From Sphagnum magellanicum (Eukaryota > Streptophyta > Sphagnopsida > Sphagnales > Sphagnaceae), in assembly GCA_021904315.1 (NCBI GenBank), contig CM038908.1:22402501-22466500 (forward strand): 64,000 bases of DNA. The letters are read 5' to 3'. The position numbers and the translations under genes were made by a program. The notes under the pieces are model-generated. The model was not told the DNA's origin. It saw only the letters and a program-made list of their open reading frames with translations, and did not search any database. This document shows, in pieces, positions 24,091 to 64,000 of the stretch (position 1 is its first letter; each line of letters starts with the position of its first letter).

Positions 24091-24573
24091 AGTTTTATAC
24101 CATTTGTTGGGGCAAGCAAAGTTGATCGTTTTAAGTAGTTAGAATGTAATTAAGTTCACCATTGTGTATGGTGTGTATGAGTAAATTATGGGGCACTAGA
24201 GTGTTCTAGACATCAAATGCAAGTACTGGATGAAAGGAGAAAATGTCCATAACACAAAACAAATGGCATCTTTGTAAATTGCTACCTCTACTACTACATA
24301 TTTTAGATTTAGCTGCGCACATATTGTGGCTCACATCACTTGAGTGGCTTTTCCATGGTTTTGGATTTGAAGTGTTATAATTTATGGTTTTTTTATTGAT
24401 ATTTGTTGAAGATGTTGCTTGAGATACATTAGATATGTACACTGAAGTTTTGAAGCAACTTCCTCACATCTTCTTTTGTTGTGTACACGTGGTACCATGA
24501 ACTCTAGAGTGGAGGAAAGACAACTTTGAGAAATGCCTTGGTTTTGTTGCATTGCCCTTGGGAGCATGTGTAG
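24091..24573 (+). other. Region between the LRR exon and the acidic exon
   Basis: Probably intron or 3' UTR of the LRR gene. Up to 24321 it is shared with the fragment at 39312-39657. From 24414 onward it is shared with copy 2 of the module (59809 onward). An AG at 24573 (tgtgtag) could be the acceptor of the acidic exon, or simply an in-frame stop before a fresh start at 24577. Confidence 0.55.
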
Positions 24574-24576
24574 CCC

Positions 24577-27500
24577 ATGGGTTATCTAACCTTTGTCATG
24601 TGTGCATGTAATGGATTGGAAAACGAGGAAGTCATGGGCAGTTGTGAAGAGGAGGTGGAGGCTGATGACAGTGAAGAGGAGGTGGAGGCCAATGACAGTG
24701 AAGAGGTGGAGGTCAATGACAGTGAAGAGGAGGTGGAGGTCAATGACAGTGAAGAGGAGGTGGAGGTCAATGATAGTGAAGAGGAGGAGGAGGTCAATGA
24801 CAGTGAAGAGGAGGTGGAGGTGGAGGCCAATGACAGTGAAGCCTACAACTTAAGTGACACCACAAAACAAGAGGTAAAGGACATGGGCTATGAACATGAT
24901 GATACTTTGAACTGTAGAACATATGTGTAAGAAGCCACATTATTGTGGCAGCAATTATCTTGGCTTCTTTACTTCTCTGAATATTAAGCCTCTCTAATAT
25001 ATATATATTTCTCTCTCTATATATATACTTCCTTTTTTCCTTATAGGAATTTTGTTTGTTATAGTTATTGATGTTGACTTCTCAACTTTCCTTGTATTCT
25101 TTATCAAGTTTCACATCCCTCATTTGCCCAAAATGAAAATTGTTTGCTAAATATGTTGCAGTGCCAATGCAGTATGCTTACTCCTAAATGTGGTTTGTCA
25201 ACCAGGCTCCAAGGTCACCATTCCATAGTCAAGAAGGGAAGAGCTCAATTCCAGCTCTCGATATGGATGCAAGTTGTTCACAGGTTCCACAGGATGTGCA
25301 CAGGTTGGCTATAATTTCTACCTTGGTTCTATGTGTATGAGGGTGATGTAACATTGATGAAAGTTTTCCACCCCTTGGTCATGTGGAATCAATATTAACA
25401 TGTAATATGCAAATTTGTGCATCAACAAGTCATCTAGCTTTGCCACATCGATTTAGTGGTTTTGAGTCCTGAGAGCATGTATCTACACATCGATATGCTT
25501 CCTTCTCAAACATTCAAGAGCTACTTCTCTTGGGTGCTAACCTATGTCATGAATGAGAACTTCTCACTTCTGTAATTATGACAAACTAATGACCTGTATT
25601 CTCATATAACTCTTTTCCCAAAAAAATTTACATATTGTTAAATAAAATCTACCCGCCTATTGAGAGCTGATCAAGTTTGGTTAGAGGAATTCAATACCAC
25701 TCATGTGGTGAAGGTGATGTTCTACTTTGTGAGTTTCACTCTCAAGGTTATGATCACACTTGTTATTGTCGTCTTTGTTCTGGATTGGCTAGAGCTGACA
25801 TAACAGTTATTGTCAAAGTGATTTTGTGGACTTCTCCTACAATCCCATGATGATATATTCCGTTTGAGATAGTCAATGTTGTAGAACCAAAAATCCCTCA
25901 AGACAAAATCCATATTATTTTCCATTAAAATCTTGAGACTGCATGTACGGTTCGGTACAGCATTGCATAATCAGATAAATCTACATGTTCCAATGTAATA
26001 ATAGTCAGTATATGGCGTGATTGTGACTTGGACATTCACAGGGAATTTCATGAACTTGGACTGCTAGAAACTGCCAAAAATAAGAAGAAGCAACATGAGA
26101 ACCAGTTCACCGAGCTCAAGTCTTCTAGCGAGAGCATCAAGGTAATTACGACAGTTGTAGACATAAGTGCTAACAAACAGCCTTGTACCAACAAGTTCCA
26201 TCAAAAAACATTTATCATCATTGTTGTTGGATTCTACTAGATGCATATGAATATATATTGCCAAACAATTAATGGAGATGTAACAAGATTCTAAAACTTT
26301 GTGATATTCATGAACAATTTGAAGAAACATTAAAGTTGATGCAAGATTCTAGAATTGTTCTTTCTAGAATCTTGCATTGATCAACTTTGTTCTTCGATTC
26401 TAGCAAATCTTAAAGCATACAGAGTTTGGATGCTTGTTGGTTAGATTTTTAGGCAAATGCATGTACCAATGACTAGTTATGTGATTGTTTGTAGGAGCCA
26501 AATCTAACAAAAGTGGATGGACCATCTACATACTTGGAGCTTGGAACAAAAGCTTTGAAGAACGTTGAAAACATGTTTTCAATACAAAGTTCCGATTCAG
26601 TACTAATCAACAAGCTTCAATGTCATTACTTATTTGACAAGCTCTGTGAGTCTTTGAATGATGCGAAGGCATGCATTGATGGTTTATCTCCACAAGACAT
26701 TCAACGATCCTGTTGTATTTTGGAGAGCCTTGCACAAACATGGAAGGAAGGTGAGATACTTGTTGGTGATTGTTGTGATGCCCAATGGATTCGAGTGGCC
26801 ATGATCTTGGCAAATGCAAAAGAGCATTTTACATCCTTGATTTTTAAATTAAGGTTGTACATGCAACTTTTTCAAAGCATTTTCAAGGAAGGAGCAACAA
26901 AGGAGTTTTTGATTAAACTACAAGATCGAAAGTGGAGTGATGATGTCAAGCATGAAGAATTCCCCATCATTGATGAGAAAGCATTGGAAGATCAACGATG
27001 GTTACTATCAAGATTGATGGCGGTTGGGTCAATTGATTCGGAGAATCTCATCAAAAGATTAAATCATCCTGGAAAGATTGATGCATGGAAGGTGGCACAC
27101 AAAAGTATTCAAAGAGTGCCATATGGTCAAATAGGAAAGGGGGCGTCTGCAATTGTGCACAAAGTTGAGTGGCTTGGAAAACATTTTGCAGAGAAATGTT
27201 TTTTTGGACCAGAGAGCGAACATTTCCAAAAAGAAGCATCTCTTCTTGCAGGATTGTCTCACCCAAATATATTGCCCTTGTTTTGTTTTGTTACTACGGC
27301 TAATTCGTGTTCCCTTGTTACGGAACTTATGGATGGGGATCTTCATGGACTGATGCGCAGAAGATTGGACAACCATGAAATCCAGGGTGCCCCATTCAAG
27401 CTTCTTGAAGCAATTGACATCATGTTGCAAGTAGCGGAAGGCATGCATTACTTACATCAAAAGAAGGTGGTTCATGGAGATTTGAAATCAACGAACATTC

Positions 27501-28003
27501 TTGTGAAGTGCGATGAACATGATGGGCATGTGTATGCAAAAGTGGCTGATTTTGGGCTCTCCAAAACAAAAGAATCAAGTTGCACATATTCCAACCTGAC
27601 CATGGATCAGGGGACAACTCGATGGATGGCACCAGAATTATTTGGCAATTTTGATCAAAGTGTTCAAATCCAGGTTTCTCAAGAGACCCAACATCCAAGT
27701 TTGTCAAATGAACAAATATCCAGGAGATATCCCTTCAAAGTTGACATCTACAGCTTCGGGATGGTTTGTTATGAAATTTTGACTGGAAATATCCCTTTTC
27801 ACAATCATATTGCAATGACGGAACTCCGAACGAAGATAAAGGATGGATTGCGGCCAAATTTACCTGAACAATGTCCTCAACAGCTCTCCAAACTGATTCA
27901 AGAATGTTATCATCCTGACCCTGCCACACGGCCTTCATTTTTTGAAATTTGTTTGGAGTTGAGACATATTATGTGTTCACTCATGATAGGTTGTACATTG
28001 TGA
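24577..28003 (+). CDS. DUF1221-type helical domain plus protein kinase, copy 1
   Basis: Proposed exons: 24577-24873 (acidic, 5' limit uncertain), 25206-25303, 26042-26141, 26495-28003. Internal phases agree (0, 2, 0), giving about 667 residues. The acidic exon encodes 9-residue EEVEVNDSE-type repeats. The short exons add a Lys/Glu-rich, possibly coiled segment (LETAKNKKKQHENQFTELKS). The last exon starts with a helical domain (about residues 1-200 from the Met at 26513) that resembles the plant kinase-associated DUF1221 family (QCHYLFDKL, TWKEGEILVGDCCDAQWIRV). The kinase follows: glycine loop GQIGKGASAIV, Lys in FAEKCFFG (228), HGDLKSTN (321), DFGLS (346), APE (373) and RPSF (473). HGD instead of HRD makes it non-RD, a type common among plant immune kinases. 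Substrate unknown; likely cytosolic. Confidence 0.85.
24646..24840 (+). repeat. Acidic 27-bp coding repeats, copy 1
   Basis: Seven imperfect units of 'gaggaggtggaggtcaatgacagtgaa' encode EEVEVNDSE or EEVEADDSE variants. Unit-length changes are multiples of three. The Ser-rich - strand ORF and the Arg-rich +2 ORF over this tract are shadows of the repeat. Confidence 0.85.
24975..25030. repeat. TA/CT microsatellite in intron
   Basis: 'atatatatat' then 'ctctctctat' and another TA run, in the intron after the acidic exon. Conserved in copy 2 near 60377-60413. Confidence 0.8.
26332..26388. repeat. 23-bp stem hairpin in the last intron, copy 1
   Basis: The left arm 26332-26354 (aaagttgatgcaagattcta and gaa) pairs with 26362-26388, apart from a 4-nt TGAT bulge, across a 7-nt loop. 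It is repeated at 63117-63173 in copy 2. It could be a tiny foldback relic or a small-RNA-like hairpin; nothing else supports either. Confidence 0.75.
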
Positions 28004-29167: not shown

Positions 29168-30089
29168 GTAAGCAACCATATTTCTCTGGAAGAATTTTCT
29201 TGGGTTTCTTTGTTTTGAATTTTCTTCAGAGATTCAGTTGCAATTCTTCCTTCAAAATCTAGAAGAGACCCATCAGTGGAAGAACCTTGTTCGAACATAA
29301 AAGTATCGTTGCAGCAGCAGCGAACAGCTGTTTTGAGGAATTTTCTCCAGTGAAGTGACCGAGTTTCTGTGTGTTTTTTTTCTGTTTGCAGCTCCCATGT
29401 ACTACAAGGGATACTACCATTTGTTCTACCAGTACAATCCTGATGCAGCAGTGTGGGGCCACATCGCTTGGGGTCATGCTGTCTCCACAGATCTGATTCA
29501 CTGGCTGTACTTGGAAAATGCTTTGGAGCCTGATCAGTGGTATGACGACATGGGAGTATGGTCAGGCTCAGCTACCATCGGCCCGGATGACATCCCCTTC
29601 ATTCTCTACACAGGTAAGGACTCTGGAGGAGCGGCATATGCAGTAGTAGCAACATGTTTCTCTATGACAGTGGACACCCACCCTTCATTTTCCTTCAAGA
29701 AAATATTCTATGGATTGGTCATAGATTCCTGCACAACTCTGTTTGAGCCCACCACCTGGGGGGCTTCTTCTTCTCTGCTTGAGTTCTTTGCAATCGTAGC
29801 AAATTCTGTTCTATCACACACGCAAATCCCACCAGATCGTTGCGAGATGTCAACTACTAAAGTGATCTTATTGTGTTTGCGTGAGATGGGAGAGATTTTG
29901 AGACTGAATATATTTAGTTGTTGTGTGACAGGGGGATCTAATGAGACTGGTCACTGCAATGAGCAGACGCAAAACATGGCAGTGCCGGCTGACCCCGAGG
30001 ATCCTCTTCTCAGGAAGTGGGTCAAAGTGAAGCAGAATCCGATAGTGAAACATCCTGAATTGTGTAGTATCTCGATGTTATGCCTGAGC

Positions 30090-30360
30090 ATTCCTCACAG
30101 ATTCTTGAGGATCTTTTAGCATCTCTCACTGGTTTTTGAGGGTTTTTAGCACTTCTCACTGATATATTCTTGAGGAGTTTTGATCATTTCTCACTGATTT
30201 TTGAGGGTTTTGTCACTGATATTCTTGAGGAATTCTCACTGGTTCTTGAGGAAATTTTTAGCATTTCTTACTGATTCTTGAGAGTTTTCTCACTGATAAT
30301 TTTTGAGATTCTGTTTCTCACTGAGTCTTGAGGTTTTTGTTTCTCACCAATTCTTCTCTG
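30090..30360 (+). repeat. Minisatellite inside the invertase gene
   Basis: About eight imperfect units of roughly 25-37 bp built on 'ttcttgaggatttttagcat' and 'ttctcactgat'. It fills the position where the exons for the central beta-propeller blades should be. Confidence 0.85.
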
Positions 30361-35668: not shown

Positions 35669-38600
35669 AATGACTTTAGATAAATGCCAGTTTTGGTTCT
35701 TTAAAGCATGTGAAAATTGCCTTAGTTTTTACTTTTAAAAAAAATAAAGGGGAGCTTACAAGAATCATCGTTGGTATTAAATTTTTTCCAAGGAAAAAAA
35801 ATTTGGTTCTCAAGCTTGATGGTTCTCAACAATTTGAGAATAGCCGGTTTTTGCAACTAATTTTCTTGGCCGGTTTTCACAAACTGAATCTTAGAAATTG
35901 CAATATTTTTTTGGAAAATTATGGCTGCGTGTAAATGTTTTGGAAAGTGTAAATGTAAATACTAAAATTATTTGTAAAATCGCCCTCTTTTTGGGCCTCA
36001 TTTCACCTCAAACCCTTTTTTCAAAGGTATCCATAAAGGAAGGAAATTTATTAGATTTGGGAATGAAATGCTAAAAATCAGCATTTAATGCACAAGGTTC
36101 AAGATTAATTATATTGGCTTTACAAGTAAGAACAATAATGGAGGCGTTAAAAAAAAGGAAAGACATGGTGAAGTTCAATTCACCACAAATATGAAGTCCC
36201 CTCCACCCTTGAATGTTCTTGTTTTATATTTTTTTTGAATTTCCTCAAGTAAAAATCACATTGTTTATAACAAGCATTAAACAGGCGCAACAACTTAAAT
36301 GTGGCATTAGGTTTGATGCATCTACAATATAATGCCTAATAGGCAAAAAAAAATTGGATTTTTTTTTTACTATACCTATGCAATGATTAATGTTATAAAT
36401 ATTTTTCTTACAAATAGTTTCAAAGAAAAAAAATGTGATGTACTGGTTAAAATCCTCCCTTCAATTGAAAGGTCTAAAATCCTTTTCCCAATTCTTTTTT
36501 TCAACAAACAAAATGGATGAAAAAATTCCATATAACATTTAAATTTTTTTTTAATTAATTTCCTTTAGGAAGTCATTTCCTTGGGCAAAAAAAATTAGGT
36601 ACAGGTCCCAAACACATTCCCCATGGAGTAAGAAAAGTTCCCTAGTGAAAAATACAACTTCCCCAAGGAACAATGCATTTTCATTGTGGAAGGGCGCAAG
36701 TTCCCCGTGGAAAAAGGCACCCTCCTTGGAGTACGATGTATTTCCCCTAAAAAAAATGCCTAAATTCCCCAATGAAACATATGCTTTAAATATTTTTATC
36801 ACCACAATCATCTCATTTTTATTTTTACATAGTCTTGCAACCTATCATTGGAAAGGTCTATAAAAGAATTACAACTTTGTAGTTGAAAACATTTTAATCA
36901 AAATTCATATGCAAAAGTTATGATGAAACAAAATTTTGAACACATTAATTCCCTAGGGCAACTTAAGGTCCTCCTTGGGGGACATGATTGTTCCCAAAGG
37001 AAAAAAAGGTTTAAGTTGTTCCCAAGGGCAACTTAAACTCCTTCTCCCTAAGGACATGATTGTTCCCTAGGGAAAAGTCAACTTCCCTCGGGGAAAGGCC
37101 CAAGTTCCTCGGGGGAACAAATGTTACGAAATTATTAGCAATCAAAATCATCTCATATTTATTTTTATATAGTCTTTTGACCTATCATTGGAAAGGTCTT
37201 GAGGAGAACTATAACTTTGTAGTTGGAAGAATTTCAATCAAAACTTATATGCAAAAGTTATGATCACATAAAGTTTTGAACACATTTGCCCATGTTCCCT
37301 CGGGAAGTAAATGTGTTCAAAATTTTGTATGATCATAACTTTCGCATCTGAGTTTTGATTAAAGTTCTTTCAACTACAAAGTTGTAGCTCTCCTCAAGAA
37401 CTTTCCAATGATAGGGCATAAGCCTATATAAAAATAAATATGAGATGATTATGATTGCTAAAAGTTTCGAAACATATGTACCGTCAAGGAATTTGGGCCT
37501 TTCCTTGGGGGAAGTTCATTGTTCCTTGGGGAAGTTGGTTTTTCCTTGGGTAATAATCATGTCCCTAGGGAGAAGGAATTTAAGTGGCCTCAAGGAGCAA
37601 CTTAAACCTTTTTTTTCCTTGAGTATAATCATGTCCCTTCAAGAGGAGCTTAAGTTGCCTTGGGAAATTAATGTGTTCAAAATTTTGTTTGATCATAACT
37701 TTTATCCTTAAACAAGAGTTGTTTAAGGATCTTCTCCCCGAAGGAACACGGTTTAAGTTGCTCCCCTAGGCACATGGTTGTGCCTAGGTGCCTAGGGGAG
37801 CAAATGTGTCCAAAACTTTGTGTGATTATAATTTTTGCATGTAAGTTTTGATTTATGTGCTTCCAACTACAAAGTTGTAGCTCTCTTCAAGAAATTTTCC
37901 AATGAGAAGTCACAAGCCTATATTACATATATTAAAGGACGTCGTGACGTGAAGCATCATTTCATCCACTTGTCCCATCATCCATTCATCCATGCATCCG
38001 GTTATCCATCCGTCCCGTCATGGTCTGTTTTGGTATAAAAGAACAAGATTAGGCTTTGGGTTTTGTGTGTAACTACTACTTTCCAAACTCCACAAGCTTT
38101 TTTTCTAGAATAGTCTCAGGCAATAATGTCAAAAGTTGTTTTTTTTTCCTCATGTACCCATTTTGGAAAGAACTATCAACAACAGTTGTTAGGTCTTATT
38201 CTCCCTTTTGATGGATTGGCCGTTTCATCCAGAATCAGTTATTTAGCACGGGTGCCAATTCTATAGACCTAATCAGCAGACCTTGACAATTCTGCAACAA
38301 TTGTTACTGAATAGTTTTGGCTGGTTGCAGATCTTAGTTTGCCCTTGGCCTTGCTTGTTTATAGTGTGTAATAAGGACGTTTTAGTCAAGAAGGTGAGAG
38401 TATTAATGTAGAGGATGGTTCACCTTGGCCACTTTGAAATAATGAACTTAGAATTCGCAGTAACATTTGGTGACCATTCCTCAAAATGTGGGACCAGATG
38501 AAACTGCATTATTGTTCCTTAGTCCCTCTCACCCTAGTCAGAAGAGGTGACCTTTTTTTTTGGTGAAAAATTATTTGTTTTTCAAAACTTTGTTGCCAAA

Positions 38601-39150
38601 TTTCTCTTTTTGTCTAAAAGAATGTGTGTTATTAGAGGTATATCTGCTGGCTACTGTTTTGATTGTGTCATATAAACGTGTCATCAATTAAGTCAAAATC
38701 TGCCTGGGGATAACTTTGATCCATCTTTTACCAGCCTCAATATGGGATTAAAGCGAGGTGCTATTGGGAACACCCTTGGGGAACAAATTGGGAACATGAT
38801 GGGAACTTAAAGGGAGCATGTTGGGAATAAAGGAAAAAAGAAAAAAATCCTTCCCCCACCCCCCAGCCGCCCCCACACAAAATTTAAAAGAAAAAAAATC
38901 AAGGCACTTTGAATGCATGAGCCTTCCCATTGGTTGCATTAAATTTTTATTTCCAAAACGGTTTGTCACCATTTTTGGCCTGGGTTAATACCCCCATTAT
39001 AAATTGGGGGTACTTATTTATTTAATACATTAATACTATGTCCGCATAGAGACAGGGTTAAAAAGAAAAACCAACATACATTTTTTTTTAATTAAAAAAT
39101 ACATATACATATATAAATGTAATAATATATGTGGCCCTGTTATTAACTAC
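35669..39150. mobile_element. Second copy of the hAT composite, internally deleted and truncated
   Basis: 35669-35925 matches 3594-3850, near the left end of the first hAT element. At about 35930 the match jumps to 9480 in the second element and runs in parallel to 12708/39145, with small indels. The palindromic array and the LTR-like segment are included. Compared with copy 1 it lacks the transposase region and both terminal repeats. It also lacks the last 1.57 kb that holds the guanylate kinase exon. The same element order in both places shows the pair was already joined before duplication. Confidence 0.88.
36590..37920. repeat. Palindromic array, second copy
   Basis: Parallel to 10150-11500, with the same alternation of direct and inverted 200-bp units. 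The tight palindrome near 37759-37802 (gctcccctaggcacatggtt and its complement) is cleaner here than in copy 1 near 11320-11355. Confidence 0.85.
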
Positions 39151-39153
39151 AAC

Positions 39154-39657
39154 TCTTTGCACACTTTGTTTCATTTTTGCACTCTCTCTACTTGCAGTTG
39201 CTAGTTCGAATCTAGTTTTTTCTTTGAACTCTCTACTTACTCCTACTTCAACTTTTTTTTTTGGTCGTCTTTGCACTTTCTACTCTCTACCGCTTCACCT
39301 ATTTTAGGTCTATGGCCAAGGCAACATCGACCCCAGTACTTTTGTGCAGCATTCCATCTACAGGTACGATTGGTGTACGAAAACCTCACTCGGTTTATGA
39401 ATTGCATTCTTATGAGTCATGCTGAAGTTTTATACCATTTGTTGGGGCAAGCAAAAGTTGATCATTTTAAGTAGCTAGAATATAATTAAGTTCACCATTG
39501 TGTATGGTGTGTATGAGTAAATTATGGGGTACTAGAGTGTTCTAGAGATCAAATGCAAGTACTGGATGAAAGGAGAAAATGTCCATAACACAAAACAAAT
39601 GGCATCTTTGTAAATTGCTACCTCTACTACTACATGTTTTAGATTTAGCTACACACA
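39154..39657 (+). pseudogene. Third copy of LRR-gene start, repeat region deleted
   Basis: 39154-39311 matches the LRR 5' leader (22173-22338). The match then jumps to 23977 and continues to 24321. About 1.64 kb, comprising the rest of the leader and nearly all of the LRR exon, is missing, with a 2-bp 'ct' overlap at the joint. The joint puts an ATG (39312) in frame with the last 17 codons of the exon, reading MAKATSTPVLLCSIPST, up to the same phase-1 donor (acag/gtacga). No kinase module follows within range, so it is probably non-functional. The left edge is fused to the truncated hAT copy. Confidence 0.85.
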
Positions 39658-42600
39658 TGGATGACCTATGCTTGGACAACAACTAAAACACACTTTGACA
39701 ACGTCGATGATGAGAAAAGATGGGGAACAACAAAAAGACAAGAACACTAACAAGGAGTGACAAAATGGCAACAAGTGATAACAAGGTGTTGAAAATGCAT
39801 GTTAGAAACATTAGGGGTGGTAGGTTAAACATGATTTTAAATTTTCAAGCAATAGTAGGCACCAAAACGTTGAAGGTTGAGGGTGTTGGGTACAATGTCA
39901 AAGGACACCAAGGCATTAAGAAATACATAGGGGACATTGTGAGCACCATTATCAAAAATGTTTTACATTTTACATTTTTTCAAACTGAAGGTCATTGGGA
40001 AGTATGGTAGGGAGGACGTTTGGGGATCTTGGAAAAGGCCCCAAAAAAATTTCTTTTGATGCCACAAGGAATGCCTAAAAGGACATCATGGGTGGTATAA
40101 ATGTCAATGCTTAGTAGGTGAAAATTAAATTTCATATTCTAGAATTAATGGAAGTTGAAATGATTTCATGGATAATCTATATTATCGAGAATTATCAATG
40201 TCCAATAACTAATTCTCTTTTACATAATTTATTTAAGTACATTTGAAATATATAAATATTTTGAATTATGTTAATTGATTATCACTAATAATGTGAAGGA
40301 ATGCAAAGCTCAAGTTGTTAGGGCCATTCATCTGAATAACTTCAAAGAACTAACAACTTACATGAAAAAACCCAAAACTTTATAGTTAGTTATTTAATTT
40401 TCGATTCATTTGAAGACCATGGTTTATATCAAAATTGTTTGTTTCATTTTTTTGGGAAATGCCATTATGAACCATTGTAATACCCATTATAATAACCATT
40501 GACAGTTTGCTATTGTTTCCTATAACCACACAACATTCATCATACCTACAAAATTTAATTCAACTTTAGGCCAACCCATTGAGATTGGAATGTCCTTATA
40601 AGCTTTAATTGTGTATTATGACAAAATATTAACTATGGAGCAAAAAACTTGGAATGTTGTTAATGTATCATGAATTCCTTCATGTATAATCAACAAAACC
40701 AACAACTTTTATCATATAGATTTGTGTACAACACTTGGCTTCACAACCCATGGCACATGGTTTGACCAACCTATGAAATCTTGAATGCCACTAGTTTGTC
40801 CCGAAATGAAAAAAAACCAACAAACAAATGGGAGGAAACCAACTCCATATTGTTGTTCAATTTCTACCTAAAGGCTAGAACCAACAAACATCACACTAAA
40901 GCAAGAATAAGTTGTTAAACATGGGGGTCATGGGATAAGTTTTGCAACTCACTGCCAAAACTCACACTAATGTGAATTATTTCCTTTCTACAGGGGAAGA
41001 TTCTTGTCAAAGTTCCAACCTATGGGAACCAAGCATCCCTTGTTCCCCCAAAGAGTAGGATTCATGTTAATGTGAGTCCCCTCCTTTTTTTGCAACTATA
41101 GATTTGCACTTACATGAGTTTCACTTGTGGAAGCCAAGAATCCCTCATTCCTTTTTGTGTCAATGTGAATCTTTTCATTTTCTACAATTATAGATTCATT
41201 TTTAAACACGAGTTCCACCTTTGGGGACCAAGATTCCCTCATTCCCCAATGGCCAATCTTGACGCCAACATGAATTTTGGTGAAATTTTTACTAAATTCT
41301 AAAACTTTTTTCCCAATTTCTATTAATTTTTGTGAATTTTTTCCATAAGTAGATTTTCCTATCATGAGGACTCATGGGGGGCAAGGTGTGAATCCTTTCA
41401 ATTTTGGTCAATATTTGCAATTTGTTTTTCAATTTTGTGTGTTTTTATCATTTTTTTTGCAACAAGCCCCTTCAAAGTTAATAATACTTTTTCAATTTTC
41501 ATAATTTTGTGATCAAATTTATGATTTCAAATTACAAAAAAGTTTATAACATTTGAGCTAAAAATGACAAAAAATAACAAAAAACTTCACAAAAAGTGAA
41601 GGAATTCAAAAAGTCCTTTCAATATAATTCATGATTTTTTCTCATATACATAATTAAAATTTTGATGTTGATAGGTGCCATATTAAGTAAGTACTTCATT
41701 CCTTTTCCATATTAACCTTTTTGTAGATGAAAAGGCAAATAAACATGCGCACTTTCATGTCCACGTTATATAAATTAAATTGACAAGGGAGATTATCACT
41801 TGTATATATGAATTTTCTATCAATTTAAAGGTAGTTAACTGGTGAAAGCACACATCTATGGCCCACTTTGTGTAGTTAGATTGTAATGTTTTTTTGCATA
41901 GTAAATCTATAAGCCTAACTATGTGAAAACTAAAGAGTTTCACAATATTTTTGCATATTATAGTATAACATAACATGAAAAAAAGTTTAGATTTTTTTTC
42001 TTTTTATATTATGGTGGGTTGTATGAAAAAAACACATGTCATTGTGTATTTAAAAAATAAAAATATATTCAAAAAGTGATTGGAATGATTTTAAACCTTT
42101 ATGAAATTTGTAATATGTTATTATACTTTTGATTGTACATAATTTGAACCATGTTTGTGAAATATTTAAAGAATTTGATCATTTTCATGTCATATATGCA
42201 TTTTTTTGGGGGTCATGATCATAAGTTATGTGGTAAATTGACATTTTGATAAAAATTCGCTTTCAAATGGAAAGTGACAATTTATTTTTTTTAATGTATT
42301 CTTAGATTTTTTTTCAAATACTTATTTGAATTACCAATTAAATTAATTTTAATACAATTTGAAATGAAAAACTAGGTTTGTTATACTATGCATATATAAA
42401 TACTATTAATGATTCCTTATATATATATATAGAATAATATTAAATGGAATTAGCTTTGGGAAAGTCCAAACTATATCCCCTAAACACCAAAAGAAAAACC
42501 TAAAATTAATTAATCACATTTAGGGAGGTGTATATTGTAGTAATGGTCATAAAAGTGCTTCAAAAAAGACCATCATAGTGTGCATTCACCCAAATGCACC

Positions 42601-45879: not shown

Positions 45880-46860
45880 ATTTAGACTACTTGTAGCTAT
45901 TATAAGTTACTTTTGGCTATTGAAAGTTATTTCACCTTAAATTATTTTTTTTTATTATAAATTATTTCACCTTAGATTATTTCTGGCAATCCTAAGCAAT
46001 TATAATATATGGCTATTGGTTGTTTTTTTATTAGTGTTATTCGTGGTTATTTTATTAGTGGCTATTGGTGGTTATTGTATTAATGGTTATTGTTGGTTAT
46101 TATATTAATGACTACTAATGGCTATTCTATTAATGGCTACTCGTGGCTATTCTATTAATGGTTATTCGTGGCTATTCTATTAATGGTTATTCGTGGCTAT
46201 TCTATTAATGGCTATTGGTGGCTATTCTATTAATTTCTATTCGTGATTAATCTATTAATGGCTATTGGTGGCTATTCTATTAATTTCTATTTGTGATTAA
46301 TATATTAATGACTATTGGTGGCTATTCTATTAATTTCTATTTGTGATTAATATATTAATGACTATTGGTGGCTATTCTAATAATGGCTATTGGTGGTTAT
46401 TATATTAATGGCTATTGGTGGTTATTTTATTAATGGCTATTGGTGGTTATTTTATTAATGGCTATTGGTGGTTATTTTATTAATGGCTATTGGTGGTTAT
46501 TTTATTAATGGCTATTGGTGGTTATTTTATTAATGGCTATTGGTGGTTATTTTATTAATGGCTATTGGTGGTTGTTCTATTAATGGCTATTAGTGGTTAT
46601 TTTATTAATGGTTATTGATGGTTATTCTATTAATGACTATTGGTGGCTATTATATTAATGGCTATTAATGAGTATTTCGTTATACGCCATCAGTGGTTAT
46701 TTTATTGGTGGTTATTGATGGTTATTGTATTATAAATTATTGTTGGTTATTATATGTTATATTACAACTATTGGTGATTATTGTATTACAAATTATTGTT
46801 TAATATTCTATGTTATAATATCATAAGCTATTGGTAGTTATTATACTGTAGGGTATTTGA
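45880..46860 (+). repeat. 25-bp minisatellite
   Basis: Unit 'ggctattggtggttatttta' plus 'ttaat', period exactly 25 bp through 46390-46560. It degrades on both sides into related 'ggttattcgtggctattcta' and 'tttctatttgtgattaatat' variants. There are roughly 25-30 units. The period is not a multiple of three and no ORF spans it. Flanks (45880-46000, 46860-47100) are older, looser versions. Confidence 0.9.
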
Positions 46861-56000: not shown

Positions 56001-57700
56001 AAAATGAATTGAAACCAAATAGACGTGTAATTTTAAATGAAGGCATGGTAGTATACAAGAAAAGTATGTATCAAGCAAAACAAAAATTTAAAATGAAACA
56101 AAATTTGACATAAACATAAGAATATAAATTTTAAAAACTATTTTATTATGAAACCATTGTGTGTTCCATTGTGCTAATGGTAATTTCAATACAAAATTTG
56201 AAAAAAATTAGTATAATAAAAATACATTTGAAGTTGATTGATCAATATGGTGCCCAAACCTATTTTTTCATTATCCAACTTGATGAAATAAATATGTACT
56301 AAACTGTAATGTAAAGGTCATTGTAGATTTTGAATACGTCATAAAATGTTATAATTTTTTTTGATATGATATGTTTGACACACATTTGAGACAAAAGTTA
56401 CTTATAATTTTTTAAAAACTATTTGCACTTTGAAAAACATATTTGAAACTTATTTTTACAATGAAAAATTTAAAATTTAAATCACAACAATGAAGAAACA
56501 TCTTATATTTGATCATTAAGTAAAAATGTTCAATATATAATAATTTTATGATCATGTTTGTTATTATTTAAATTTACTTTCGCTTAGGACTACCAAAGTG
56601 GTCAAACTATATACTTTGTTTTGCCCATAATTGGAAACAATGTAATTTCTTATTCCCCAAGTTTCATTCGCTTTATAGATAACCCCCATTTGGGGATGAA
56701 TTTTACTAAGGATAAAGAATGATTTACGAAGGTTAAAATACAAGGTGACTTTAAGGAAAATTCTTTTGTCTTCAAATTAATTCATAAATTTGATTTAATT
56801 ACATTTTGAATTGAAGATTCAAACCCTTTCACATATTATAGTGTTCACACATTGAAGTTGAGCAATTTTAGTAAGTATAATGAAGTTAGCATATTTATGT
56901 TGAAATGATCAATTCCAAATCACAATTTAGCCCAACTTAATTTATTTATTTTAGTCCATCCAATTAATAATTGATTGCAAATTAGAAGCAAAATAATTCA
57001 TATTTCAAAGTTTTTCAACATGTCAAGATGACTAGAGGGAAAACTTTAGCATCTATTTTTATTTAAAATTTTGTAATGTGGACACAAAATCTCCAATTTT
57101 ACACACCCCCAACTTGTTGACCTTAATTGTTTAAGGATGAGTTAATTAGGGTTAAAAATTATGCAACCACTAATGATCTTAGATTATGTTTAACTTGGCT
57201 TTGACTATTGCACACACAACTTTAGCATATTGTTCCTAAAAAATAATGTAGTTCTTCCAATTAATATGCACTTATCTTATGTAGAATGATTTGTACATTG
57301 TGGCACTTACTAAGGTTGGGTAGGTACCTACCTACTTGGGCAAGTCGAAACAACCAATCTCAATTTTGGTAAGTAAGAATTGAAGTGAAAATTGGTTTGA
57401 TTTTCATAATTAGAATCTTTTTTTATAATTTTTTATAATAAAAAAGGGCTTCAAAATGGGTTCTTCAATGAAACAATAAAAAATTTAATATCCTTTTGCA
57501 TACCCTAGCTAGGTTATTAGAACCATGATTTCTTATTCTAGGGCTAAATTCACCTTAAAAAAAAAAAGGGTTGCAAAAGTGGGACATTATTGTAGAGCTA
57601 AAAACAAGCAACTTTCATCCAAACTTTAAAAAAAAAACCACAATAGATCAAGGTAACATAATAAGAATGTCCAAGGATTTTAAGCATTCTGATATGTACA
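47100..57700. other. Long AT-rich gene-poor region
   Basis: No gene is supported over about 10.6 kb. 47810-48790 repeats the 'gtgaatcccttcactttttg' family seen at 41-45 kb. A CA run lies at 48312-48331 and a TA run near 48877-48890. The 152-residue + ORF at 50574-51032 and the 65-residue - ORF at 52950-53147 have no motif I recognise. From about 50500 to 54350 the + strand is noticeably C-rich against A/T-rich surroundings, without further evidence for a gene. Confidence 0.55.
50574..51032 (+). other. Unrecognised 152-residue open frame
   Basis: Longest open frame in the desert, rich in Phe, His, Leu and Tyr, with no recognised domain, signal or repeat. The ATG lies in a region of locally higher GC. 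It could be a decayed mobile-element fragment or chance. There is no neighbour, second copy or splice context to support a gene. Confidence 0.15.
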
Positions 57701-57724
57701 CTACATGTTCACTCACAAGCCCCT

Positions 57725-58246
57725 GTCGGTCTACTTAGCCTAGGCCCTGGGTACTCTTAATTAACGTTCGCTCACAAGCCTGTCAACCATGCTGCTGTTG
57801 GTTTCTCTAAGTGTTCGGTCACTGGCCTGTCTCCTCTTCGGCTGGGTGGCGCCGGTCGCGGATTCTGCGGGTCGCGTTCGCTGCCGAAGAGGTTACCACC
57901 TCACTCCCGTCCGTCCCTGGCGCTGCGCGGGTTTGCCCTTCTGTGGTGGCCTCTCGCGAGAATTGTGTTGCGATCCGGCGAAGGAGAGAAGAAGAGAAGC
58001 GAATCAATAGGGGAAGGAGAGGGAGGACAATTTTTTTTTTTCTGTTATGAGTGCATGGATTGGTGTGGCATGCACTTCATTCGTGAGTTTTGTATTTCGG
58101 CAGAGTTTCTTGGTTTTTGGTGACGGATTGTTTTAGTTTTGGAGAGGGTTGTGGGAAGAATAAGAAGAAGAAGAAGAAGAAGAAGAAGGGTTTTGCGGGT
58201 AACGACGGGTCAGGAGGTAGGGGATTTGGTCGCCGCAGTAGCAGTT
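57725..58246 (+). promoter_or_regulatory. GC-rich promoter and 5' leader of the SAP gene
   Basis: Abrupt change from AT-rich desert to GC-rich DNA at about 57780. 'gttcactcacaagcccctgtc' type words repeat at 57707 and 57766. A (gaa/aag)n purine run at 58157-58190 lies just before the ATG at 58247. ORFs here, including an Arg-run extension from 58139, are leader shadows. Confidence 0.55.
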
Positions 58247-59600
58247 ATGTCGACTCCGCTGCCAGCTTACGGGAATAGGACGCCGGAGCAGCTGAAAGTG
58301 GCGGAGGTTCGAGACGAACTCAGGAGACGTGGAGTTCATATCAAGGGTTTGAAGAAAGGCTTGGTGGATCGATTGGAGGAGTTGCTGCGGCATGAAGAGC
58401 AGCAGCAGCAGCTGCAGCGGCAACTGCTGCTACAACAACAGGAGGTAGCGGTGCCGGGAACGGTGGGAGTGAGCCAAGCCCCGGGACTTGGAAACATTGA
58501 TGATACACAGCCTGTGACTCCAGTGCCGAAGAACAAACCCGCTGAAGTCGAAACAGAAGCAGAAGTACAAGCAGGAGCGGTTGTGGAGCTTGTTGCAGAG
58601 GAGGCAGCGGGGCAATTGCCAGAGGTAAAACTTGTGCTAGAAAATGAAGTCATGGATGTAGGCAAGGCTATAGCAGAGGAGCTTACTGGAGACACTGGGC
58701 ATGTAGAAACCATCGTTGATTATAAGGAAGCTGCAATAGCGACTGAGGATAAACCGGCGCAAGAGGAGAATGGACTGTCTGAGGTCGCAGAGGCTATAGC
58801 TGCCTCGGAGGCCGTTGTGCATGAGAAGGAAAATGTCGTAATAGAGTCTCAGTCCCATGCACCTGCTGCAGAGAAGGCAGTCGTCATCGAGTCTGATGCT
58901 GCACCAGCGGAAGAAGAGGTTGTTGCTGATGCTGCTGCGCAACAGGTGGCTTTGCAGCCTCCTGTTGCTGAAGCTGTAGAGGAGGAGGCGGCTTTGGAGG
59001 CTGTTGCAGAACCTGCAGAAGAAGAAGAAGAATCTGCGCGAAGGGCCGTTGTGGAGCCTGAGTCGGGACCTGTTATAGCCGCACTGGACGAGGAAGCTGT
59101 AACACCATTGGAAGAAGAAGTTGTAGCGCCAATGGAAGACGAGGAAGTTTTAGTCGTCACAGAGGTGGTGACGGAGGAGACCCAAGTGACCACGGAGGAG
59201 TTCAAATCCACCACCGAGTTTTTGGTCGAGACCCCAGGAGAGTCCATGGATGGAGATGAGGAAGAAGAAGTTGTAGAAAAAACTGTTGTAGTGCAAGTGG
59301 ATAGTAGAGACGAAGAGGCAAGGGAAGAAGTTGGGGAAGAAGAAGCTGGCATAACAACTGGTGAAGAGAAAATAGTCCGAGAGGAAGAAATAATTGTGGA
59401 AGAAATCAGGGATTTTGAACAAGATGTGGAAATGAAAACAGAAACTGTGGTGGAAGAAGAGAGTGCCAAGCTCCAGGATGAGCTGGAAATAAGGCTAGAA
59501 GCAGCAGCTCCAGAAGCTGACCCTGAGCTGAAGGCAAAAGATGTGAAGCCTATGGAGGTGGATGTAGACACACAATCACGCCCTAAACGGAAAGAAGGAG
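58247..59600 (+). CDS. ACINUS-like SAP-domain protein, first coding exon
   Basis: The ATG at 58247 starts MSTPLPAYGNRTPEQLKVAE, followed by a SAP DNA/RNA-binding motif (LKVAEVRDELRRRGVHIKGL, then KKGLVDRLEELL) within residues 15-50. It matches the N-terminus of plant ACINUS, an apoptosis- and splicing-associated component of the exon-junction ASAP complex in the nucleus. A Gln-rich helix follows, then about 350 residues of Glu/Ala/Val-rich low complexity ending QSRPKRKEGG. The donor gag/gtcagt at 59600-59601 is phase 1. The RRM-like and RSB-motif exons expected downstream are not in the window. The kinase-module duplication begins only 209 bp into the intron. The gene is therefore truncated, interrupted by a nested insertion, or fused to that module. 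Confidence 0.8.
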
Positions 59601-59808
59601 GTCAGTTTGGGTTTCCTGGCTTTGAATTTTTTTCCTCTTTTCATGGAATCTTGCAAAGTAGGGGAAAGTGTTTCTCATGTTGGATCTGGAGAGTTAGATC
59701 CATGAGTGAAACTTGATGAGACAACATAACCAAGTAAGCTGTACAGAAGAGATGAGATGTGTGTTTCAACATTTTTGGCAAATCCATACAGAATAGATGT
59801 TGAACATT

Positions 59809-61632
59809 GTTGCTTGAGATACATTAGATATGTACACTGAAGTTTTGAAGCAACTTCCTCACATCTTCTTTTGTTGTGTACACGTGTTACCATGAACTCT
59901 AGAGTGGAGGAAAGACAACTTTGAGAAATGCCTTGGTTTTGTTGCATTGCCCTTGGGAGCATGTGTAGCCCATGGGTTATCTAACCTTTGTCATGTGTGC
60001 ATGTAATGGATTAGAAAACGAGGAAGTCACGGGCAGTATTGAAGAGCAGGTGGAGGCCGATGACAGTGAAGAGGAGGTGGAGGCTGATGACAGCAAAGCC
60101 CGATGGTGGAGGCTGATGACAGCGAAGCCCAATGACAGTGAAGATGAGGTAGAGGCTGATGACAGTGAAGAGGAGGTGGTGGCCAATGACAGTGAAGAGG
60201 AGGTGGAGGTTGATGACAGTGAAGAATACAACTTAACTGACAGCACAGAACAAGAGGTGAAGGACATGGGCTATGAATGTGATGATACCTTGAACTCTAA
60301 AACATATGTGTAAGAAGCCACATTATTGTGGCAGCAATTATCTTGGCTTCTTTACTACTCTGAATATTAAGCCTCTCTAATATATATATATTTCTCTCTC
60401 TATATATATACTTCCTTTTTTCCTTATAGGAATTTTGTTTGTTATAGTTATTGATGTTGACTTCTCAACTTTCCTTCTATTCTGTATCAAGTTTCACATC
60501 CCTCTTTTGCCCAAAATGAAAATTGTTTGCTAAATATGTTGCAGTGCCAATGCAGTATGCTTACTCCTAAATGTGGTTTGTCAACCAGGCTCCAAGGTCA
60601 CCATTCCATAGTCAAGTAGAGAGGAGCCCAATTCCAGCTCTTGATATGGATGCAAGCCGTTCACAGGTTTCGCAGGATGTCCACAGGTTGGCTATAATTT
60701 CTACCTTGGTTCTATGTGTATGAGGGTGATGTAACAGTGATGAAAGTTTTCCACCCCTTGGTCATGTGGAATCAATATTAACATGTAATATGCAAATTTG
60801 TGCATCAACAAGTCATTTGGCTTTGCCACATTGATTTAGTGGTTTTGAATCCTGAGAGCATGTATCTACACATTGATATGCTTCCTTCTCAAACATTCAA
60901 GAGCTACTTCTCTTGGGTGCTAACCAATGTCATGAATGAGAACTTCTCACTTCTGTAATTATGACAAACTAATGACCTGTAATCTCATATAACTCTTTTC
61001 CCCAAAAAATTTACATATTGTTAAATAAAATCTATCCCACTATTGAGAGGTGATCAAGTTTGGTTAGAGGAATTCAATACCACTCATGTGGTGAAGGTGA
61101 TGTTCTACTTTGAGTTTCACTCTCAAGGTTATGATGACACTTGTTATTGTTGTCTTTGTTCTGGATTGGCTAGAGCTGACATAACAGTTACTGTCAAAGT
61201 GATTTTGTGGACTTCTCCTACAATCCCATGATGATATATTCCTTTTGAGATAGTCAATGTTGTAGAAACAAAGATCCCTCAAAACACAATGCATATTATT
61301 TTCCATTAAAATCTTGAGACTGCATATACGGTTTGGTACAGCATTGCATAATCAGATAAATCTACATGTTCCAATGTAATAATAGTCAGTATATGGTGTG
61401 ATTGTGACTTGGACATTCACAGGGAATTTCATGAACTTGGACTGCTAGAAACTGCCAAAAATAAGAAGAAGCAACATGAGAACCAGTTCACTGAGCTCAA
61501 GTCTTCTAGCGAGAGCATCAAGGTAATTACGACAGTTGTAGCCATAAGTGCTAACAAACAGCCTTGTACCAACAAGTTCCATCAAAAAAAATTTATCATC
61601 ATTGTTGTTGGATTCTACTAGATGCATATGAA
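59809..61632 (+). repeat. Segmental duplication of kinase-module 5' part
   Basis: Matches 24414-26251 nearly base for base, introns included, so this is DNA-level duplication in direct orientation about 35 kb away. The left boundary is at 'gttgcttgagatacattag'. The match resumes at 63037 (equivalent to 26252) after a 1404-bp block absent from copy 1. Confidence 0.93.
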
Positions 61633-64000
61633 CAGGACAGGCATGTTCCATAAAAATGCATGCATCTAGATGAGAAGTTCTAGATCCAGTAAGGGAAGTT
61701 TTTAGTTTTTAATTTGAACCTGCCATAAAGGGCTGAGTCATTGCAGGATGAGCTGCTTGTACACTTATCTACGTCCATTTTCAGGAGTTGAAAAGGTCAC
61801 TGGGTAATAATAGCTGGTAGTCCCTGCAATTCATGATGAAGGTGATGGTCTGGAACTTTGTGAGTGACAAGTCCCAAGTTATGAGTGCACTCACTCTTGT
61901 TATGTTTCTTTTGGTTTGGCTGGACCTGACATAATGATCACCTAAAGTGTGGAGCTCTCTCTGCAATCTTCTGGTTATGTTGTTCAAAAAATGCCTGGAG
62001 GGCTGTTTTTGAACTCGCCAGTTGAAGACAAGAGGACTGCTTGTGGCACCTGATGCGGCATGGCATGCTTCTGCAAACAAGTGTTCAAAGTATCAAGTAG
62101 TGTTGAATCTTTGTGGCAGTATTCTATTGGGGAAGTTATATTGATCATGAAACTGTTCTGCTGGTCACTCCCAGGTTGCAGAATCAGTCTTACACTTTGC
62201 TTTTGTGTCAAAGAATTTGTACGTGCACAGAACTCTTATGTTCTATCACTCTGTAACCATGGACTTGTGACCTAGAGTGTATCTATTCTCTCACCATTTC
62301 TTCTCCTGGAGTTACTGCTCCTGATGTGGAAGGTAGTTTGCTGCAGTCCTGGTGGTTGTCCAGGCATAGTACTGTAAGCTAGCTTGCTACAAAAATTCTA
62401 ACAACAGTATTTGATCTGACGTCATCCGAAGGTGTCATTGGCCTTTTATAAATTTTTGTATTATGATTTTGCAGCTGGATGGTCATATTATACCAGGATT
62501 CAAGGCTTGGTTTACTCTGATATCCTAGCTGAGGTAAAGGTTGTGGATGAACCCACAGTTGTGTTGAAGCCTGATCTACAGTTTGTTGTGCTTGCTTGCA
62601 GCCACAAATGCACTTTAAGGTTAAGATGTGTTGTGGAAAGTGTGAAGATAAAGTCAAAGAAGAAGTTGTTGATGTTCCTGGTGAGGGTGATCCACAACCC
62701 AGCCCTGCATCTGCACATTAAGCCATATTCTGTTGCAAGTGCACACTAATTTAATTCTTTTGCAGGTGTTGTGGACATGAAATGTTGACCCATATTCTGC
62801 TGCAAATATGCAAACTCATTTTAGTTCTTGTACAGGTGTTACAGAGGTCAAGGTAGACGGACGGGCTTCACAAGTTGCTGTATTTGGGGAAGCTGACCCA
62901 TCTCTAGTGCTGAAGAAATTGAAGAAGGTTGACTGGCGAGCAAAGGCTATTTCAGTGGATAAAAAAAAATTGCAGCTGGTGAGTTTGGCACTGGCCCCGA
63001 AACCTTGTCCATTATGTCATCCCTCATGGTCAATAGTATATATTGCCAAACAATTAATGGAGATGTAACAAGATTCTAAAACTTTGTGATATTCATGAAC
63101 AATTTGAAGAAACATTAAAGTTGATGCAAGATTCTAGAATTGTTCTTTCTAGAATCTTGCATTGATCAACTTTGTTCTTCAATTCTAGCAAATCTTATAG
63201 AGTTTGGATGCTTGTTGGTTAGATTTTTAGGCAAATGCATGTACCAATGACTAGTTATGTGATTGTTTGTAGGAGCCAAATCTAACAAAAGTGGATGGAC
63301 CATCTACATACTTGGAGCTTGGAACAAAATCTTTGAAGAACGTTGAAAACATGATTTCAATACAAAGTTCCGATTCAGTACTAATCAACCAGCTTCAATG
63401 TCATTACTTATTTGACAAGCTCCATGAGTCTTTGAATGATGCGAAGGCATGCATTGATGGTATATCTCCACAAGACATTCAACGATCCTGTTGTATTTTG
63501 GAGAGCCTTGCACAAACTTGGAAGGAAGGTGAGATACTTGTTGGTGATTGTTGTGATGCCCAATGGATTCGAGTGGCCATGATCTTGGCAAATGCAAAAG
63601 AACATTTTACATCCTTGATTTTTAAATTAAGGTTGTACATGCAACTTTTCCAAAGCATTTTCAAGGAAGGAGCAACAAAGGAGTTTTTGATTAAACTACA
63701 AGATCGAAAGTGGAGTGATGATGTCAAGGATGAAGAATTTCCCATCATTGATGAGAAAGCATTGGAAGATAAACAATGGTTACTATCAAGATTGATTGAG
63801 GTTGGGTCAATTGATTCGGAGAATCTCATCAAAAGATTAAATCATCCTGGAAAGATTGATGCATGGAAGTTGGCACACAAAAGTATTCAAAGAGTGCCAA
63901 ATGGTCAAATAGGAAAGGGGACATCTGCAATTGTGCACAAAGTTGTGTGGCTTGGAAAACTTTTTGCAGAAAAGTGTTTTTTTGGACCAGAGAGCAAACA
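59972..64000 (+). CDS. DUF1221-type helical domain plus kinase, copy 2 (3' cut by window)
   Basis: Exons equivalent to copy 1: 59972-60256 (acidic, donor gag/gtgaag, phase 0), 60589-60686, 61423-61522, and 63273 to beyond the window. All are open, with the same phases. The final exon is open for 728 nt through the helical domain, the glycine loop (GQIGKGTSAIV) and the Lys in FAEKCFFG, where the window ends. It differs from copy 1 by scattered substitutions, so both copies appear maintained or recently split. Between the third and last exons lies a 1.4-kb block containing two HMA-domain exons whose phases allow in-frame inclusion. The upstream neighbour is the SAP exon rather than an LRR exon. 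Regulation and substrate are unknown. Confidence 0.82.
60046..60228 (+). repeat. Acidic 27-bp coding repeats, copy 2
   Basis: Same unit as copy 1. One stretch (about 60093-60130) is read in another frame (KARWWRLMTAKP) and the original frame then returns, so two small indels cancel out. The exon end and donor phase are kept. Confidence 0.8.
62602..62978 (+). CDS. Heavy-metal-associated (HMA) domain, two exons
   Basis: Exon 62602-62680 reads PQMHFKVKMCCGKCEDKVKE then EVVDVPG. Exon 62836-62978 reads VTEVKVDGRASQVAVFGEAD, PSLVLKKLKKVDWRAKAISV and DKKKLQL. The M-x-C-x-x-C-type metal site is present as MCCGKC, and the beta-alpha-beta-beta-alpha-beta pattern is complete at about 70 residues. The closest family is the plant HIPP/ATX1-like 'MCCxKCE' group. 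The first acceptor is phase 0 (cttgcttgcag/CCA), the internal junction phase 1, and the last donor (cagctg/gtgagt) phase 0, so the pair is a symmetric 222-nt cassette. It lies between the phase-0 kinase-gene exon end at 61522 and the phase-0 acceptor at 63273. It could be an independent small gene fragment with its own Met at 62608, or an integrated domain. Confidence 0.78.
62703..62840 (+). repeat. Tandem duplication of about 70 bp in the HMA intron
   Basis: 'ccatattctgttgcaagtgc' to 'ttttgcaggtgtt' is repeated as 'ccatattctgctgcaaatat' to 'cttgtacaggtgtt'. Each copy ends in an acceptor plus GTGTT. Only the second leads into a long open exon; the first meets a stop after about seven codons. 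Confidence 0.75.
63117..63173. repeat. Hairpin in last intron, copy 2
   Basis: Same stem, 4-nt bulge and loop as 26332-26388, unchanged by eye between the two copies. Confidence 0.75.

What the first reader, a model, noticed from the sequence alone, without database searches (positions are those of the whole stretch)
61423..63400. In-frame HMA cassette inside the intron of a DUF1221-kinase gene: candidate integrated decoy
The two HMA exons (62602-62680, 62836-62978) have outer phases 0/0 and total 222 nt. They lie between a kinase-gene exon ending in phase 0 (61522) and the kinase exon starting in phase 0 (63273). Splicing 61522 to 62602, 62680 to 62836 and 62978 to 63273 keeps one open frame and places an HMA domain just before the helical-kinase part. 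Copy 1 lacks the block. HMA domains are known integrated baits in plant NLR immune receptors (RGA5, Pik). An HMA joined to a non-RD DUF1221 kinase is, as far as I know, not described.
Basis: partly seen in the sequence, partly recalled or inferred. Interest (0 to 1): 0.88.

Follow-up and report, generated by a model that had tools for sequence, protein, structure and literature searches.

The report
HMA exons in a plant kinase gene
A plant gene for a kinase related to cell-death kinases carries two extra exons that would add a metal-binding-type (HMA) domain to the protein; the sequence fits this well, but whether the plant joins them in its RNA, and whether the domain is a bait for pathogens, is untested.

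Summary
Two exons (62602-62680, 62836-62978) splice into a 74-aa HMA domain (PF00403, 39.4 bits, cut-off 24.8, E 8e-10). Phases and splice sites fit between exon 61423-61522 and the kinase exon at 63273; the frame is open with and without the cassette. A duplicate 35 kb upstream lacks exactly 61633-63036, with a blunt joint and no target-site duplication. The HMA exons score as coding. The gene may start further up, at a SAP exon (58247) or at ATG 60571.

The label needs correcting: neither kinase copy matches DUF1221 (PF06760), while an MLKL control does. The kinase domain is nearest to 6lba and 6ka4 in the PDB; the helical part resembles 6lba only weakly. 'Integrated decoy' is unproven: the MxCxxC motif is intact, unlike the four resistance-protein HMAs with a motif entry in a review table, and an HMA-kinase fusion (barley RPG1) is already known. 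An independent HMA gene or an HMA-first kinase transcript stays possible. No plant genomes or transcripts could be searched.

The parts
58247..59600 (+). candidate exon 1: SAP domain plus acidic low-complexity region (may belong to this gene or to a separate upstream gene)
   Evidence: PF02037 SAP E 7.2e-07, 29.1 bits, cut-off 23.9; joins exon 2 in frame
60015..60307 (+). candidate exon 2: acidic 27-nt repeats
   Evidence: open and in phase in both copies; repeats; 9 of 74 positions of its non-repeat tail differ between copies
60571..60686 (+). exon 3 (60589-60686 if spliced; ATG at 60571 is an alternative in-frame start)
61423..61522 (+). exon 4, ends in phase 0 at donor GTAATT
   Evidence: 1 of 100 positions differs between copies
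61633..63036 (.). 1404-bp block absent from copy 1
61816..61968 (.). old diverged repeat shared with intron 3 (61069-61225; best copy-1 match 25706-25803)
   Evidence: blastn E 1.5e-10, 74.5% over 102 nt against copy 1; 0 of 300 shuffles reach the score
62602..62680 (+). HMA exon 1, acceptor TTGCAG, donor GTGAGG, phases 0 to 1; contains ATG 62608
62836..62978 (+). HMA exon 2, acceptor TACAG, donor GTGAGT, phases 1 to 0
63273..64000 (+). kinase-gene exon: MLKL-like helical region and start of kinase domain, cut by window end
   Evidence: 93.4% identical over 242 aa to copy 1; copy 1 against 6lba
24404..28003 (+). copy 1: exons 2-4 (24620-24924, 25206-25303, 26042-26141) and complete kinase exon 26495-28003, no SAP exon, no HMA block (duplication alignable as far as 27222, where copy 2 is cut)
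   Evidence: PF07714 E 4.2e-47

Best explanation
Copy 2 is a plant MLKL-like kinase gene in which two cassette exons place one complete HMA domain just before the helical (HeLo/DUF1221-related) region. The cassette can be spliced in or skipped without a frame change, so the locus can give HMA-plus and HMA-minus proteins. Copy 1 is a 5'-truncated duplicate that probably lost the cassette by a 1.4-kb blunt deletion. Likely working: the HMA domain is an accessory sensing or docking module in front of a cell-death-type helical domain and a kinase with intact catalytic motifs (as read in copy 1). It binds a metal ion, a metal-chaperone partner, or a pathogen effector that targets such proteins, and so controls release of the helical domain or kinase signalling. 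Shown: the domain, the phases, the coding signal and the precise absence from copy 1. Inferred: splicing, the direction of change, and every functional step. Among functions I put effector bait at about 0.3 and metal- or partner-dependent control at about 0.4.
For: Intact HMA, E 8.1e-10. No stop with or without the cassette. GT/AG sites throughout; acceptor 62602 and donor 62979 (GTGAGT) look among the most consensus-like of the gene (consensus recalled, not scored). In-frame coding score +19.4; the first 222 nt of the copy-2 kinase exon give +15.4, though its twin was in the training set. The kinase exon seems to need an upstream exon: the codon before it is an in-frame TAG and its first Met is residue 27, inside the helical region. 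Kinase part: 6lba E 2.6e-40 as a whole-protein match with a two-row profile. Helical part: Smith-Waterman z 6.2 and 6.6 against a 6lba fragment, above all 2000 shuffles for each copy (the fragment was chosen, so somewhat flattering). Blunt joint, longest word shared within 12 nt of the two block ends 4 nt, no target-site duplication, which fits deletion better than transposon insertion.
Against: No transcript evidence. PF06760 is not matched by either copy. In the profile search the helical stretch is not significant by itself (6lba 7.1 bits, independent E 20; 6ka4 -0.9 bits). Skipping is equally in frame, and copy 1 shows that the exons read without HMA. A TATA-like TATAAATT lies at 62447 and an ATG at 62608 opens the HMA, as in a free HMA gene. 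The 150-nt homology of the block with intron 3 does not extend across the block's left border, so it does not prove that the block is native.
Confidence: 0.52

Rival explanations
1. HMA-first transcript: the block carries its own promoter and first coding exon (ATG 62608), spliced into the kinase exon through 62978/63273, giving an HMA-kinase protein that lacks the upstream exons.
For: TATAAATT at 62447 and ATG 62608 six nt after the acceptor, natural as the start of an HMA protein. HMA exon 2 joins the kinase exon in phase. The kinase exon seems to need an upstream start.
Against: TATA-like words are frequent in this AT-rich DNA (4 TATAWA in 59601-63272). A good acceptor at 62602 suggests an internal exon.
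Confidence: 0.17
2. Independent small HMA gene sitting in the kinase intron, read to the stop at 63065 or to another 3' end, with no fusion protein.
For: The HMA frame runs on past 62978 to a stop at 63065-63067; own ATG and TATA-like site.
Against: A consensus-like donor GTGAGT at 62979 in the phase that fits the kinase exon. The tail that read-through would add (about 29 residues) was not tested for similarity.
Confidence: 0.16
3. Recent insertion of an HMA gene fragment into copy 2 that is spliced out with the intron or only sometimes included (non-functional passenger).
For: Present in one of two copies only; copy 1 keeps an open kinase frame without it.
Against: No target-site duplication and no inverted repeat of 16 nt or more pairing the two block ends; HMA frame intact; the block holds an old repeat also found in the gene's own intron 3 and at no other place in the window at E up to 1.
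Confidence: 0.13

Closest known systems
Plant MLKL proteins (DUF1221/HeLo-kinase; PDB 6lba and 6ka4, recalled as Arabidopsis MLKLs; wheat Pm13 is an MLKL_NTD-kinase)
   Same: Kinase domain whose best PDB matches are 6lba and 6ka4, preceded by a predicted-helical region that lines up in order with 6lba (DxxLIN..QC, KEGE..V..C.D), weakly.
   Different: PF06760 not matched. Catalytic loop HGDLKSTN, DFG and APE intact in copy 1; Pm13 also has its key kinase residues, whereas AtMLKLs are described as pseudokinases (PMC10951266, passages). Extra HMA and upstream exons.
Barley RPG1 (HMA-pseudokinase-kinase)
   Same: HMA domain N-terminal to kinase-type domains (PMC12835825, section 8 read).
   Different: Listed as a tandem kinase (no MLKL helical domain in the listed architecture), and its HMA has no conserved residues of the metal motif.
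NLR integrated HMA domains (RGA5, Pik-1)
   Same: An HMA domain fused in frame to a presumed immune protein.
   Different: The predicted protein here is a kinase, not an NLR; MxCxxC intact here, degenerate in those listed; no effector known.

Membership tests
HMA domain (PF00403) | Pfam score above gathering cut-off | tested here: met
   39.4 bits vs 24.8, E 8.1e-10; best PDB match 8r7a, rice protein, E 5e-06
HMA domain (PF00403) | MxCxxC metal-binding motif | tested here: met
   MCCGKC in the spliced sequence
Plant MLKL / DUF1221 kinase | PF06760 match | tested here: not met
   No match for the first 209 residues of either copy at E up to 10 (HMMER's filters drop most matches above about 0.1), nor for the kinase exons at E up to 1; positive control (95-aa 6lba fragment) E 7.9e-50
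Plant MLKL / DUF1221 kinase | Kinase-fold domain of the MLKL type | tested here: met
   Best two of 2275 PDB sequences matched are 6lba (E 3.7e-43) and 6ka4 (E 1.7e-38)
Plant MLKL / DUF1221 kinase | N-terminal helical region homologous to that of MLKL | tested here: inconclusive
   6lba stretch 7.1 bits, independent E 20, but in the right order; helical part alone finds no MLKL in the PDB at E up to 1; pairwise z 6.2 and 6.6 against a fragment chosen
Plant MLKL / DUF1221 kinase | Four-helix bundle fold, oligomer, cell-death activity | tested here: inconclusive
   Fold: AlphaFold models have pLDDT 38.5 and 32.5 and are not usable; oligomer and activity not testable here
Integrated decoy (NLR-ID / kinase fusion) | Fused domain expressed as one protein with the signalling domain | not testable with these tools
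   Open frame and splice sites only
Integrated decoy (NLR-ID / kinase fusion) | Effector binds the fused domain | not testable with these tools
   none
Integrated decoy (NLR-ID / kinase fusion) | Degenerate metal motif, usual in known HMA baits (not strictly defining) | tested here: not met
   Motif intact here; degenerate in the 4 HMA rows with a motif entry, of 5 rows in the review table

The most novel reading that the evidence does not exclude
An immune or cell-death kinase of the MLKL type with an integrated, metal-competent HMA domain, included as a skippable cassette, and possibly with a SAP-domain N-terminus as well (SAP-acidic-HMA-MLKL-kinase). This would be the first MLKL-type protein known to me with a bait or metal-sensing domain, meaning that plants hang HMA domains on cell-death effectors as well as on NLRs and tandem kinases.
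Probability: 0.3. Interest if true: 0.75.

Novelty: new variant of a known kind. Interest (0 to 1): 0.5.

Why it matters
HMA domains recur as pathogen-effector baits in NLRs and occur in at least one tandem kinase. Finding one in front of an MLKL-type cell-death kinase would widen the set of immune scaffolds that take up such domains, and two near-identical neighbours, one with and one without the domain, would allow a clean comparison of function. If transcripts do not join them, it is an ordinary intron passenger.

Tried and rejected
(1) Positive selection on the kinase: no sign of it; codon count gives dN 0.030, dS 0.049, ratio 0.61 (17 nonsynonymous, 7 synonymous differences), and 0.48 for exons 3, 4 and kinase together.

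(2) The block as part of an old duplicated intron 3, which would have shown it to be native: a whole-intron alignment against copy 1's intron 3 scored above shuffles (333 against mean 141.6, sd 39.3, max 261 of 300), but piecewise the clear signal sits only in 61816-61968 (0 of 300 shuffles); the next best pieces, 62476-62601 and 61969-62230, gave 18 and 26 of 300. The left flank 61523-61632 gave 46 of 300 at or above its score against copy 2's intron 3 and 156 of 300 against copy 1's. So not used as proof. An earlier gapped alignment of the block with intron 3 (score 374; 200 shuffles, mean 279, max 339) probably reflects the same 150 nt.

(3) An exon-4 relic after 62230: 158 of 300 shuffles as good, rejected.

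(4) Structure prediction of the copy-1 kinase exon (two rows) and of its first 209 residues (one row): pLDDT 32.5 and 38.5, no fold search made.

(5) Relatives of the kinase in the viral and the prokaryote collection: 4 and 18 pattern matches, none confirmed by tblastn; expected, as these do not hold plants. Plant genomes could not be searched.

(6) RNA families over 57000-64000 at E up to 0.1: one match, far below its gathering score (19.1 of 40 bits, E 0.099), ignored.

(7) Other Pfam scans: copy-1 exons 2-4 as one peptide gave only VWD at E 0.25, below cut-off; ORF 62420-62746 just upstream of the HMA gave nothing. NCBIfam gave bacterial copper-chaperone models for the HMA peptide (best CopZ E 6.8e-09), all below their cut-offs, and bacterial kinase models for the kinase, all below cut-off.

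(8) Retro-copy or transposon origin of the block: no target-site duplication, no inverted repeat joining its ends (minimum 16 nt), and no second copy in the window apart from the 150-nt repeat.

Full report
What is there. The window is plant-like DNA of unnamed origin (my inference from gene content); no whole genome is held for it. At 58247-64000 a run of exons reads on the + strand in one frame: SAP exon 58247-59600, acidic exon 60015-60307, exon 3 60589-60686, exon 4 61423-61522, HMA exons 62602-62680 and 62836-62978, and a kinase-gene exon from 63273 to the window end. Joined, they give 931 aa without a stop, or 857 aa without the HMA exons. The spliced HMA peptide matches PF00403 at 39.4 bits (cut-off 24.8), E 8.1e-10, and HMA structures in the PDB (5 sequences at E up to 0.01; best 8r7a, a rice protein, E 5e-06). 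The metal motif MxCxxC is intact (MCCGKC). The domain is split over two exons (VPG|V). A tblastn of the peptide against the window at E up to 0.1 finds only these two exons.

Is it more than chance? The domain match is not chance. The fit of phases by itself is weak evidence, about 1 in 9 once the HMA frame is given. In the open stretch upstream there are 2 AG acceptors, of which 62602 is in phase; downstream 3 of 8 listed GT are in phase, one of them GTGAGT. A codon score trained on the copy-1 kinase exon and the LRR-like ORF gives the HMA exons +19.4 bits in frame, against -13.8 and -35.4 in the other frames. The first 222 nt of the copy-2 kinase exon give +15.4, but its twin was in the training set. 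Of 1690 overlapping 222-nt stretches (both strands) from parts of the window that I took as non-genic, 2 reach the HMA score.

The second copy. 24404-27222 aligns with 59798-64000. Introns differ at 37 of 1576 aligned positions, the kinase exon at 24 of 728. The copies are 93.4% identical over 242 kinase-exon residues. Copy 1 lacks exactly 61633-63036. The joint is blunt, there is no target-site duplication, and the longest word shared within 12 nt of the two block ends is 4 nt. Copy 1 starts within intron 1, lacks the SAP exon, and has GGATTGG where copy 2 has the exon-2 acceptor GGATTAG, but has an ATG in frame at 24634 and is open to its stop at 28003. The simplest history is a 5'-truncated duplicate that later lost the HMA block; insertion into copy 2 is not excluded. 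A 150-nt piece of the block (61816-61968) is an old relative of part of intron 3 (74.5% over 102 nt against copy 1, E 1.5e-10; 0 of 300 shuffles) and is found at no other place in the window at E up to 1. This fits a block of local origin, but the likeness does not cross the block's left border, so it is no proof. The HMA intron also seems to hold an old partial duplication of its acceptor region (62718-62770 and 62785-62840; no shuffle control).

What kind of kinase. Pfam finds a protein kinase domain in copy 1 (PF07714, E 4.2e-47). DUF1221 is found in neither copy: not with the kinase exons at E up to 1, nor with the first 209 residues at E up to 10 (the program's filters drop most matches above about 0.1). 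A 95-aa fragment of 6lba used as control hits PF06760 at E 7.9e-50. Yet the best two of 2275 PDB sequences matched by copy 1 are 6lba and 6ka4, which I recall as Arabidopsis MLKL structures. With a two-row profile a helical stretch also lines up with 6lba in order (33-121 to 23-117) ahead of the kinase (222-498 to 255-517), but at 7.1 bits and an independent E of 20 it is not significant by itself, and in 6ka4 it is weaker still (-0.9 bits). The helical part alone finds no MLKL in the PDB at E up to 1. In a pairwise test it scores 61 and 63 against shuffles with mean 30 and maxima 55 and 57, 2000 shuffles each; the 6lba fragment had been chosen, which flatters the test. So I call it MLKL-like, a diverged relative. 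In copy 1 the catalytic loop reads HGDLKSTN (non-RD), with DFG and APE present; in copy 2 these lie beyond the window end. The Pm13 paper (PMC10951266, passages only) describes the plant helical domain as HeLo/DUF1221, AtMLKLs as having pseudokinase domains, and Pm13 as an MLKL_NTD-kinase with the key kinase residues.

Where the gene starts. The kinase exon seems to need an upstream exon: an in-frame TAG precedes it, and its first Met is residue 27, inside the helical region. Starts that fit are ATG 58247 (SAP), ATG 60571 in exon 3 (TATA-like sites at 60381 and 60401), or ATG 62608 in HMA exon 1 (TATAAATT at 62447). TATA-like words are common here, so I give this little weight. The SAP exon joins in frame but may be a separate gene, since exon 2 meets a stop just after its donor at 60307.

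Function. HMA domains are known effector targets and baits. A 2025 review (PMC12835825, section 8 read; [quoted passage not shown] In the four with a motif entry the metal motif is degenerate; here it is intact. So a bait role is possible but not favoured over control by metal or a partner. Chia et al. (PMC11218826, passages) report NLRs and NLR-associated proteins, a group that includes MLKL, in all tested species, and more NLRs with integrated domains in the mosses Ceratodon and Sphagnum; 'HMA' does not occur as a word in its main text. RefPlantNLR (PMC8559963, passages) uses PF06760 for the plant MLKL HeLo domain. PMC9950082 (passages) describes plant MLKLs as conserved across seed plants and acting in TNL immunity. 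Reveguk et al. 2025 is not held and Mahdi et al. was not read. For prior reports of an HMA-MLKL protein I have eight searches of the open-licence PMC library: HMA or heavy-metal-associated with MLKL, kinase fusions, tandem kinases or moss (12, 8, 14, 5 and 1 papers listed), DUF1221 (3 papers), MLKL with HeLo or moss (20 of 585 listed) and MLKL with Marchantia and NLR (5). I saw titles and starts of abstracts, plus passages of five of these papers, and no such protein among them. This is not proof of absence: most subscription papers and all plant gene annotations were out of reach.

Results against my reading. The cassette can be skipped in frame. Copy 1 does without it. The Pfam model for DUF1221 fails and the helical likeness is weak. 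The structure models are unusable. No plant relatives could be searched. The organism is not known; that it is a plant, perhaps a moss, is my inference (names recalled).

Verdict. A real, coding-looking HMA cassette in an MLKL-like kinase gene, most likely part of it; decoy function open. New variant of a known kind (domain fused to an immune-type kinase).

Noticed in passing
60234-60307 and 60589-60686 vs copy 1: Exon 2 tail and exon 3 differ between the copies at 19 of 172 positions, introns at 37 of 1576 (Fisher P 5e-07). These exons diverge faster than the introns around them, with synonymous changes too; this could be cDNA-mediated gene conversion or diversifying selection.
   Followed up: partly
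58247-59600: SAP-domain exon with an Acinus-like start (name recalled), in frame with the kinase-gene exons downstream.
   Followed up: partly
9491-12718 and 35929-39154; 22175-24322 and 39154-39658: Further segmental duplication (pieces about 90-95% identical). The second copy lacks 22339-23974, most of the LRR-like ORF 22576-24087, and keeps its last 37 codons: another difference of about 1.6 kb between duplicates.
   Followed up: partly
60095-60130: In copy 2 the acidic repeats of exon 2 hold a stretch read in a shifted frame (KARWWRLMTAKP) that returns to frame, as if by two compensating indels.
   Followed up: no
63124-63162: Perfect 16-nt inverted repeat with a 7-nt loop in the last intron, identical in both copies.
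   Followed up: no
45996-46842: Long tandem array with spacing near 25 nt (self-comparison).
   Followed up: no
28324-30119 and 1093-1542: ORFs that look like plant acid invertase and cystathionine gamma-synthase pieces (names recalled; Pfam on 28324-29148 gave no significant match).
   Followed up: no
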